DNA from: Corynebacterium marinum DSM 44953
GTDB lineage: Bacteria; Actinomycetota; Actinomycetes; Mycobacteriales; Mycobacteriaceae
Direction of reading: 5' to 3'
Assembly: GCF_000835165.1 (NCBI RefSeq)
Contig: NZ_CP007790.1
Coordinates: 2,480,001 to 2,544,000, forward strand
Length of the DNA: 64,000 nucleotides
Shown here piece after piece: positions 46,348-48,313 of the stretch (positions are counted from its first letter, which is position 1; each line of letters opens with the position of its first letter). The notes below the pieces were generated by a model that did no database searches, was not told where the DNA came from, and was given only the letters and a program-made list of their open reading frames with translations. Both the position numbers and the translations under genes were made by a program.

Positions 46348-47841
46348 CTAGCCGCGCGCCATGTCCACGAAGCGGGAGAAATGCAGCTGGTGGGCGACGG
46401 TGACAGTGTCGATCGGGCCGCCGCGGTGCTTGGCCAGGATGATGTCCGCCTCGCCGGCGCGGACGTCCTCGCGGTCCTGGGAGTCGGGGCGGTAGAGGAG
46501 CATGACCATGTCGGCGTCCTGCTCCAGCGAGCCGGACTCGCGCAGATCGGCGAGCTGGGGCTTCTTGTCGGTGCGCGCCTCCGGGCCACGGTTGAGCTGC
46601 GAAATTGCGATGACCGGCACGTCCAACTCCTTCGCCAGCAGCTTGAGCTGGCGGGAGAACTCCGAGACCTCCTGCTGACGCGACTCGACCTTCTTGCCCG
46701 AGCTCATCAGCTGCAGGTAGTCGAGGACGATCATCTGCAGGTCGTGCTTCTGCTTGAGGCGGCGCGCCTTGGAGCGGATCTCCATCATGGTGAGGTTCGG
46801 GGAGTCGTCGATGAACAACGGCGCCTCCGAGATCTGGCCCGAACGGTTGGCCAACGTGGTCCAGGCCTCGTCGCTCATGCGGCCGGAACGCATGTCGGAG
46901 AGCTTGATGCTCGTCTCCGCGGACAGCAGCCGCATGACGATCTCCGACTTGCTCATCTCCAGGGAGAAGATCACCGACGCCTTGCGGTGCTTGATCGACG
47001 CCGAACGCATGAAGTCCAGCGCGATGGTCGACTTACCCACACCGGGCCGCGCGGCGACGATGATCATCTGGCCGCCGTGCAGGCCGTTGGTCAGGTTATC
47101 CAGGTCGACGAACCCGGTGGGCACACCCTGCGCCAGGCCGCCCAGGTTGGCGATCTGGTCGAGCTCCTCCAGGGTCGGGGTCAGGATGTCGCCCAGCACC
47201 GCGTAATCCTCGGTCTCGGTCTTCTGCGCGATGGCGAAGACCTCCTGCTGCGCCATGTCGAGGACGGTCTCGACCTCCGCGCCCTCGTTCCCCTCGTAAC
47301 CCAGCTGCACCACGCGGGTGCCGGCGGCGACCAGCCGGCGCAGGATCGCCTTCTCCGAGACGATCTCCGCGTAGTAGCGGGCGTTCGCCGCCGTGGGCAC
47401 AGAGGAAATGAGGGTGTGCAGGTAGGGTGCACCGCCGACCCGCTCAAGATCGTTGTGGCGGTCGAGCCGCCCGGCGACGATGACGGGGTCGATGTCCTTG
47501 CTCTCGCCGAACAGGTCGATCATCGCCGTGTAGATCAGCTGGTGCGCCGGGTGGTAGAAGTCCTCCGGGCTCAGCTCACCGACGATCTCCACGACCGTGT
47601 TCGGGCTGAGCAGCATCGCGCCGAGGACGCCCTGCTCCGCCTCCCGGTCATGCGGCGGCTGCCGGTACTCGCCGAAGCTGGGTGCGGGATCCCGCTTGTG
47701 GCGTTCCTTGTGGCGGCGCGGCGCGGCGTCCTTGAAGGCCTGCACCGGGAGCCCCCCGCCGCCTGTGTCCTCCGGCAGATCCGGTTCAGCCGGCGGAACA
47801 AAATCATCGTCGAAACTGGTGCCGCCGAGTCCTGAGGTCAT
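46348..47841 (-). CDS. dnaB: replicative DNA helicase DnaB
   Basis: A 497-aa hexameric helicase that unwinds DNA at the replication fork. A disordered acidic/basic N-terminal stretch (1-60) precedes the N-domain (PPHDREAEQGVLGAMLLSP). The RecA-like motor has Walker A AARPGVGKSTIALDF, Walker B MQMIVLDYLQLM and the C-terminal DLRESGSLEQDADMVMLLYR. No intein is inserted at the P-loop, unlike in some mycobacteria. A TAGACT -10 (plus 47912-47917) gives a 60-nt leader. Start ATG 47841 with AGGAAAGGA 13 bases upstream. Separated from rplI by 580 bp holding DnaA boxes. Confidence 0.97.
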   Translation of the reverse strand: MTSGLGGTSFDDDFVPPAEPDLPEDTGGGGLPVQAFKDAAPRRHKERHKRDPAPSFGEYRQPPHDREAEQGVLGAMLLSPNTVVEIVGELSPEDFYHPAHQLIYTAMIDLFGESKDIDPVIVAGRLDRHNDLERVGGAPYLHTLISSVPTAANARYYAEIVSEKAILRRLVAAGTRVVQLGYEGNEGAEVETVLDMAQQEVFAIAQKTETEDYAVLGDILTPTLEELDQIANLGGLAQGVPTGFVDLDNLTNGLHGGQMIIVAARPGVGKSTIALDFMRSASIKHRKASVIFSLEMSKSEIVMRLLSAETSIKLSDMRSGRMSDEAWTTLANRSGQISEAPLFIDDSPNLTMMEIRSKARRLKQKHDLQMIVLDYLQLMSSGKKVESRQQEVSEFSRQLKLLAKELDVPVIAISQLNRGPEARTDKKPQLADLRESGSLEQDADMVMLLYRPDSQDREDVRAGEADIILAKHRGGPIDTVTVAHQLHFSRFVDMARG

Positions 47842-47956
47842 CTGTACGCGTTAGTCCTTTCCTCCGGGCCGGCCCCCCCGGTGAGGAGGCGCGGCCCACG
47901 CTTCTGCTCGCAGTCTAGCCCCCGGCGGGCCTGGGGCGAATCCCCTTGCCGACCCC

Positions 47957-48160
47957 TGTGGACAAGCCCCCTCCCGAGGCCCGCGATGACGTCCGTCACC
48001 CGAGTTATCCACAGGGTTTGTGGACAACCCGAGGTAAACAGGGGGTTTATCCCCCGGCGTCCCCTCCGGCCTGTGGACAACATGTGGACAACCGTCCACA
48101 CAGACTCGACGTTCTCCCCTGTCGTACCAGTTCAGAAGCGTTTTTCCCCGTTGTGGACAA
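47957..48160. promoter_or_regulatory. cluster of six DnaA boxes upstream of dnaB
   Basis: Exact 9-mers: TGTGGACAA (the inverted form of the actinobacterial box TTGTCCACA) at 47957-47965, 48019-48027, 48072-48080, 48083-48091 and 48152-48160, plus TTATCCACA at 48005-48013. The 48005/48019 pair is inverted with 5 bp between. Near matches: 48092 (CCGTCCACA), 48287 (TTCTCCACA) and 48297 (TCATCCACA). The gap 47842-48423 has no gene. The cluster ends about 40 bp upstream of the dnaB -10 box. Confidence 0.75.
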
Positions 48161-48313
48161 CTCTGCGCCACCGGTGCATAACCCCCAAGACCAGCACGTT
48201 TGACAGGCCAGGAAGGGCAAGGTAGCGCGGAACGTGCGGGTAAAGGACGGAAACCACACGGTTACTGGCAGGTTAAATGCCCCAGTTTCTCCACAGTCAT
48301 CCACAGGCGGCAG

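What the first reader, a model, noticed from the sequence alone, without database searches (positions are those of the whole stretch)
47957..48305. Six exact DnaA boxes in the dnaB-rplI gap
In a 580-bp gene-free gap there are five TTGTCCACA-type 9-mers and one TTATCCACA, all within 204 bp, and three near matches. The two at 48005 and 48019 form an inverted pair with 5 bp between. Six exact 9-mers in 200 bp is far above chance. oriC in corynebacteria lies at dnaA-dnaN, which is not here, and no AT-rich unwinding element is visible, so this looks like a DnaA-binding control or titration site tying dnaB expression to DnaA level.
Basis: partly seen in the sequence, partly recalled or inferred. Interest (0 to 1): 0.72.

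Follow-up and report, generated by a model that had tools for sequence, protein, structure and literature searches.

The report
Conserved DnaA-box cluster beside dnaB
Between two genes of this Corynebacterium lies a tight cluster of binding sites for DnaA, the protein that starts chromosome copying; its layout is shared by many related bacteria, so it is probably a switch or a sink that ties DnaA to the helicase gene next door.

Summary
In detail: six exact TTRTCCACA 9-mers lie within 204 bp (47957-48160) of the 582-bp rplI-dnaB gap; shuffles of the window average 0.41. By exact count it is the second-largest cluster in the genome, after seven boxes beside dnaA. Of 120 Corynebacterium dnaB-upstream regions (119 genomes), 114 carry at least two exact boxes, often in one geometry read towards dnaB: + at 0, + at 11, + at 64/65, - at 79. 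Parts of it recur upstream of dnaB elsewhere in the class. Published work shows DnaA bound upstream of dnaB in M. tuberculosis (in vitro) and M. smegmatis (ChIP-seq), and a DnaA mutant that binds there less and under-expresses dnaB. So this is the Corynebacterium counterpart of a known DnaA site. New here are the geometry and natural separations: in three lineages opposed genes lie between cluster and dnaB, or dnaB has moved, yet the cluster persists between convergent genes. That argues against an operator role only. Best reading: an oriC-proximal DnaA assembly site that influences dnaB and also takes up or modulates DnaA. Binding in this species and both functions are inferred.

The parts
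48152..48160 (-). DnaA box TTGTCCACA, outer box 69 bp upstream of B1 (read towards dnaB)
   Evidence: exact match
48083..48091 (-). core box B1, TTGTCCACA
   Evidence: exact match; position 0 of the four-box geometry
48072..48080 (-). core box B2, TTGTCCACA; tandem with B1, 2 bp between
   Evidence: exact match; +11 of the geometry
48019..48027 (-). core box B3, TTGTCCACA
   Evidence: exact match; +64 of the geometry
48005..48013 (+). core box B4, TTATCCACA; inverted to B3, 5 bp between
   Evidence: exact match; +78 in this genome, usually +79
47957..47965 (-). DnaA box TTGTCCACA nearest to dnaB
   Evidence: exact match
48287..48295 (+). near-match box TTCTCCACA
   Evidence: one mismatch
48297..48305 (+). 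near-match box TCATCCACA
   Evidence: one mismatch
47912..47917 (-). putative -10 element TAGACT of dnaB
   Evidence: read by eye; similar TANNNT hexamers lie just upstream of dnaB in several relatives (sequences); the consensus scan found no promoter; inference
46348..47841 (-). dnaB, replicative DNA helicase
   Evidence: TIGR00665, 521.9 bits
48424..48876 (-). rplI, ribosomal protein L9
   Evidence: TIGR00158, 133.3 bits
48320..48358 (-). intrinsic terminator-like site after rplI, separating it from the box region
   Evidence: 18-bp stem and T tail; fold -37.8 kcal/mol

Best explanation
It is an oriC-proximal DnaA assembly site at the head of the dnaB transcription unit. DnaA binds the tandem pair B1-B2 (2 bp apart) cooperatively and the inverted pair B3-B4 about five helical turns further on, forming one compact nucleoprotein complex. 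In the usual layout this complex tunes dnaB transcription, more likely by activation. Because the site is copied soon after each initiation (about 80 kb from dnaA here), it also takes up DnaA or changes its nucleotide state, a role that does not need dnaB next to it. Shown here: the boxes, their conservation and geometry, the location, and persistence without dnaB. Inferred: DnaA binding in this species, cooperativity, the sign of dnaB control, and the uptake role.
For: Six exact boxes where shuffles average 0.41. Of 120 Corynebacterium regions 114 have at least two exact boxes, 3 have one and 3 none; 99 of 120 have at least two within 1000 bp of dnaB and 12 more have at least two ahead of a codirectional GH15-like gene that precedes dnaB (family confirmed for L039 only). 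Geometry: in 88 non-redundant regions '+ then - at 68 bp' occurs in 26 and 'tandem at 11 bp' in 22; in 300 random placements no class exceeded 7. The four-box model scores 30 or more in 44 of 120, against 1 of 120 read the other way and 0 of 120 read backwards; this window scores 35.7 of a possible 36. In the class sample (83 regions, none from Corynebacterium) there are 77 exact boxes against 7 backwards; tandem 11-12 pairs occur in 22 of 83 against 1 of 83 read the other way, and ++64-66 in 28 of 83 against 0 of 83. M. tuberculosis DnaA binds upstream of dnaB in vitro, M. smegmatis DnaA in ChIP-seq, and the I282T protein binds there less while its strain under-expresses dnaB (PMC7738170, passages). 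E. coli DnaA prefers box pairs 2-3 bp apart (PMC11317965, passages). dnaB lies 35-142 kb from dnaA in 29 of 29 genomes measured. Persistence without dnaB.
Against: No binding or expression data exist for this species in what I saw. In 22 regions where rplI is not adjacent, the cluster still lies by dnaB (23 listed, one of them, L147, is a contig end), which favours a dnaB role over a purely positional one. In G058 dnaB has moved and no exact cluster lies by dnaB or downstream of rplI, so the element is dispensable in at least one lineage. In G090/G045 only 2 of 3 boxes are shared (25 of 36 box columns identical, 193 of 392 others) and the inverted pair is part of a longer palindrome, so it may survive there as a terminator. 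The constraint tests are modest: 119, 138 and 9 of 20,000 random block sets were as conserved. The full four-box module was found in 44 of 120 regions, not in all; its commonest pair in Corynebacterium (+ - at 67-69, 66 of 120) occurs in only 1 of 83 class regions.
Confidence: 0.55

Rival explanations
1. The cluster is only a DnaA-responsive operator/enhancer of dnaB; persistence elsewhere is inertia after recent rearrangements.
For: 99 of 120 regions have at least two exact boxes within 1000 bp of dnaB and 12 more ahead of a codirectional GH15-like gene that precedes dnaB; 22 keep them by dnaB although rplI is not adjacent; the I282T DnaA binds the dnaB promoter less and its strain under-expresses dnaB (PMC7738170). 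The box-constraint tests in separated genomes are modest.
Against: G073/G121: 36 of 36 box columns identical against 430 of 599 others although dnaB has left. G011 keeps four exact boxes with the 20/162/68 spacings of a relative, with two opposed genes in between. Distance from the last box to dnaB varies widely while the internal spacing does not.
Confidence: 0.25
2. It is purely a DnaA sink or DnaA activity-switching site (datA-, DARS- or Streptomyces-cluster-like); the closeness to dnaB is incidental.
For: Persistence between convergent genes in three lineages; 35-142 kb from dnaA in 29 of 29 genomes; fixed internal geometry. The datA core of E. coli also lies in an intergenic region downstream of its neighbours (PMC5742627, passages).
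Against: Association with dnaB across 83 class regions and in 22 regions without adjacent rplI; published effect on dnaB expression.
Confidence: 0.15
3. It is a second or former replication origin, or a palindrome/terminator that mimics DnaA boxes.
For: Six boxes resemble an origin; GC skew in 4-kb steps changes sign weakly at 48 kb (-0.015 to +0.028); B3-B4 folds as a hairpin here, z -5.75.
Against: No AT-rich tract in the gap; the DnaA gene and its box group are about 80 kb away; larger skew changes occur elsewhere in the window. Pairing beyond the boxes shows no consistent excess over shuffled partners in 57 non-redundant genomes (11 to 199 of 200 shuffles reach the observed value at each of 12 positions); B1-B2 are tandem, not palindromic.
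Confidence: 0.05

Closest known systems
DnaA site upstream of dnaB (Rv0057 region) in M. tuberculosis / M. smegmatis (PMC7738170)
   Same: Same place relative to dnaB; one of the five regions most enriched for DnaA.
   Different: The 21 loci with mycobacterial titles examined have zero or one exact box near dnaB, against three to five in 93 of 120 Corynebacterium regions. Geometry and separation from dnaB were not in the passages I read.
E. coli datA
   Same: Intergenic cluster of DnaA boxes whose order and spacing matter, with head-to-tail boxes (PMC5742627, PMC4585315, passages).
   Different: datA needs an IHF site and its essential boxes have one direction; here one core box is inverted and no IHF-type site was looked for.
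E. coli DARS1/DARS2
   Same: Small set of DnaA boxes with an opposed pair (PMC5742627, passages).
   Different: ADP-DnaA preference and ADP release are biochemical and untested; box spacing was not compared base by base.
Streptomyces coelicolor DnaA-box clusters near oriC (recalled: H69, H24, D78, J Bacteriol 2006; not seen, the search found nothing)
   Same: Recalled as high-affinity clusters near oriC that limit initiation.
   Different: Whether any of them is the dnaB-upstream cluster could not be checked here.
E. coli 'double DnaA box' targets (PMC11317965)
   Same: Pairs 2-3 bp apart are the preferred in vivo targets (passages); B1-B2 are 2 bp apart.
   Different: There a double box suffices; here it is one half of a four-box module.

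Membership tests
Extra-oriC DnaA-box cluster | several consensus boxes closer than chance, away from oriC | tested here: met
Extra-oriC DnaA-box cluster | DnaA binds it | not testable with these tools
   published for the mycobacterial counterpart only
Actinobacterial dnaB-upstream DnaA site | lies upstream of dnaB | tested here: met
   conserved in the genus and in the class sample
Actinobacterial dnaB-upstream DnaA site | dnaB expression depends on DnaA binding | not testable with these tools
   association for the I282T mutant of M. tuberculosis only
datA (DDAH) | IHF site placed between essential boxes | not tested
   no IHF motif search was made
datA (DDAH) | essential boxes all in one direction | tested here: inconclusive
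   B4 is inverted to B1-B3 and the inverted pairs are conserved, but which boxes are essential is unknown
DARS | promotes ADP release from DnaA; binds ADP-DnaA preferentially | not testable with these tools
   biochemical
Replication origin (oriC) | AT-rich unwinding element beside the boxes | tested here: not met
   lowest 30-mer GC 47% in the gap, 17% beside dnaA
Replication origin (oriC) | GC-skew switch | tested here: inconclusive
   weak sign change at 48 kb (-0.015 to +0.028), smaller than others in the window; no genome-wide skew was computed

The most novel reading that the evidence does not exclude
The four-box module (+0, +11, +64/65, -79) is an ancient DnaA-homeostasis element of Actinomycetes: a site of defined geometry near oriC that binds an ordered DnaA oligomer and switches or stores DnaA after initiation. 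It would do in these bacteria what datA or DARS do in E. coli, with dnaB control as a secondary or later role.
Probability: 0.33. Interest if true: 0.78.

Novelty: new member of a known kind. Interest (0 to 1): 0.5.

Why it matters
How Actinobacteria restrain DnaA between rounds of replication is poorly understood (my own background knowledge). A small site with fixed box spacing, present in 114 of 120 Corynebacterium regions examined (at least two exact boxes) and partly traceable across the class, gives a concrete object to mutate and footprint. The natural separations from dnaB make the question 'operator or DnaA sink?' directly testable.

Tried and rejected
Second origin: rejected on dnaA position and lack of an AT-rich tract; the skew test was inconclusive. 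Conserved RNA hairpin or terminator as the reason for the inverted pair: the window and a few genomes have an extended stem, but pairing beyond the boxes shows no consistent excess over shuffled partners in 57 non-redundant genomes; the lowest value is 11 of 200 shuffles at the twelfth position. Rfam: three hits, all below the gathering score, two of them on the rplI terminator. Promoter scan: none found; the -10 named in parts is by eye. The same four-box geometry at the other clusters of the genome: not found, best 23.9 against 35.7.

Literature (open-licence PMC papers only; listings, except passages of PMC7738170, PMC11317965, PMC4585315 and PMC5742627): DnaA box + dnaB + upstream + Corynebacterium 0 papers; DnaA box cluster + actinobacteria 1; DnaA box + dnaB + mycobacteri + replicative helicase + promoter 12, which gave PMC7738170; DnaA boxes + Corynebacterium glutamicum 11; DnaA binding sites + ChIP-seq + Corynebacterium 0; DARS/datA + spacing 5; 'upstream of dnaB' + DnaA + transcription 1, the same mycobacterial paper; DnaA boxes with Streptomyces or 'outside oriC' 60, 15 listed; D78 + DnaA boxes + Streptomyces 0; DnaA boxes + actinobacteria + 'dnaB gene' 0. 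The unread papers could mention such a site.

Rows dropped before counts: of 121 genus genomes, G102 (no dnaB match) and G046 (partial dnaB) were not fetched; the 120 regions are 119 genomes plus one dnaB paralogue (G116, L204). Of the 88 genomes, the window's own and G127, G141, G189 and G193 were not used; 83 regions were analysed, several from one family or genus. Of the 80 named loci, 68 were examined. For dnaA distances, G019 and G029 were left out for lack of a contig length; circular contigs were assumed.

Full report
Observation. The six boxes are real and placed as described. They are the only exact TTRTCCACA matches in the window. In the whole genome (2.73 Mb, 3 contigs) there are 46 exact matches against 11 for the pattern read backwards. 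They fall partly into groups: seven at C1:1712-1913 just after dnaA, four at C1:2606910-2607062 close to the end of the contig (dnaA lies at its start), four at C1:23196-23500, and the six here. The gap begins at the rplI stop, includes the rplI terminator and ends at dnaB; it is GC-rich and has no unwinding-type tract.

Conservation in the genus. From 121 Corynebacterium genomes I took 120 regions upstream of dnaB (119 genomes plus one paralogue; G102 and G046 dropped). 114 of 120 carry at least two exact boxes, 93 of 120 three to five, 3 have one and 3 none. In 79 regions both the rplI end and the dnaB start were found; 78 of these 79 have no exact box outside the gap. The three regions with none are a second dnaB copy (L204, G116), G058 (L202) and G073 (L257).

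Geometry. Read towards dnaB, the commonest pair classes in 120 regions are + then - at 68 bp (36) and tandem + + at 11 bp (22), followed by + then - at 14 bp (19). In 88 non-redundant regions the first two occur in 26 and 22; random placement of the same boxes gave at most 7 for any class in 300 trials. Together they make a module: B1 + at 0, B2 + at 11, B3 + at 64/65, B4 - at 79. The model scores 30 or more in 44 of 120, against 1 of 120 read the other way and 0 of 120 backwards. Between the boxes the sequence is much less conserved (40 regions selected on the geometry). The window has a near-perfect copy; other clusters of the same genome do not. Box weights in this model were set by hand, and the model was made after seeing the spacings. 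Tandem 11-12 pairs with up to one mismatch also occur in the other direction in 21 of 120 regions, against 61 of 120 towards dnaB.

Beyond the genus. In the named loci (68 of 80 examined) exact boxes upstream of dnaB are common but fewer outside Corynebacterium; L104 (Aeromicrobium) and L105 (an actinomycete MAG) score 32.2 and 34.2 on the four-box model. In 83 class regions, none from Corynebacterium, there are 77 exact boxes against 7 backwards, and 48 of 83 regions have at least one. A scan over all spacings and orientations ranked ++12, ++11, +-12 and ++65 highest (z 5.5, 4.7, 4.1, 3.6); the backwards control reached 3.2. B1-B3-B4 together occur in 12 of 83 regions, from three families (labels); ++64-66 in 28 of 83 against 0 read the other way, tandem 11-12 in 22 of 83 against 1. 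Against a fully shared module: + - at 67-69, the commonest pair in Corynebacterium (66 of 120), is in 1 of 83. The sample includes related genomes, so these are not independent counts.

Natural separations. (a) In 22 regions rplI is not adjacent and the cluster stays by dnaB (L147, also listed there, is a contig end). (b) In 14 regions a codirectional GH15-like gene lies between cluster and dnaB; 12 of these have at least two exact boxes and 2 have one. The family was confirmed for the L039 product only. The gap from that gene to dnaB runs from overlap to about 300 bp, so a shared transcript is likely in some and open in others. (c) In G011 (L162) TatD- and ThiF-family genes, both opposed to dnaB, lie between; four boxes remain with the 20/162/68 spacings of the relative L151. 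(d) In G073 and G121 dnaB is about 9 kb away on the other strand; no exact box lies in the 9.8 kb (G073) and 4 kb (G121) upstream of it. The cluster stays downstream of rplI and faces a convergent UPF0176/rhodanese gene. There 36 of 36 box columns are identical against 430 of 599 others; 119 of 20,000 random block sets did as well. (e) In G090 and G045 the cluster lies between rplI and a convergent alpha-amylase gene, with a TetR gene before dnaB; 2 of 3 boxes are shared (138 of 20,000), and the inverted pair is part of a longer palindrome, so a terminator role is possible. Cases c-e mean that a dnaB-operator role alone does not easily explain retention, but the tests are modest, G011 was compared with an unseparated relative, and G058 shows that loss is possible.

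What is known. Passages of PMC7738170 report five regions most bound by M. [quoted passage not shown] smegmatis ChIP-seq; [quoted passage not shown] Passages of PMC11317965 report that E. coli DnaA prefers boxes 2-3 bp apart. Passages of PMC5742627 and PMC4585315 describe datA and DARS. So the finding is a counterpart of a known site; geometry and separations are what I add, as far as the searches listed in Tried and rejected reach.

Mechanism. Most likely an ordered DnaA complex forms on the module, near oriC (35-142 kb from dnaA in 29 of 29 genomes), influencing dnaB where it is next door and taking up or modulating DnaA in general. Steps shown: sites, geometry, location, persistence. Steps inferred: binding in this genus, direction of control, effect on initiation.

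Noticed in passing
own genome C1:23196-23500 (L011, L243): Four exact boxes in a gap downstream of a cyclophilin gene and a rhomboid gene. Possibly the counterpart of the mycobacterial Rv0010c-Rv0011c DnaA site; the neighbourhood of ppiA there is recalled.
   Followed up: partly
own genome C1:2606910-2607062 (L237): Four exact boxes close to the contig end, next to dnaA if the contig is circular; the position would match the published rpmH-dnaA site. rpmH itself was not looked for.
   Followed up: partly
own genome C1:1618544-1618567 (L241) and C1:2359391-2359415 (L239): Close opposed box pairs near an RNase HII gene and near a carbon-nitrogen hydrolase gene.
   Followed up: partly
G058 (L202, L268): This genome, with dnaB moved and no cluster by dnaB or downstream of rplI, has 127 exact boxes (10 backwards), against 52 in G073 and 53 in G121; eight of the listed ones lie on C21:90980-92612.
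   Followed up: no
L265 2160-2425 and L266 2156-2421, read with rplI on +: Between the boxes these two genomes share conserved AT-rich blocks with TTATTCAC-like words.
   Followed up: no
G116:C1:364000-368000 (L204); G028, G078: Second dnaB-like genes; the G116 copy has no exact box in the region taken.
   Followed up: partly
L120, L219, L223, L224: A TANNNT hexamer 6-7 bases before the likely dnaB start codon suggests a leaderless dnaB mRNA (by eye, sequences).
   Followed up: no
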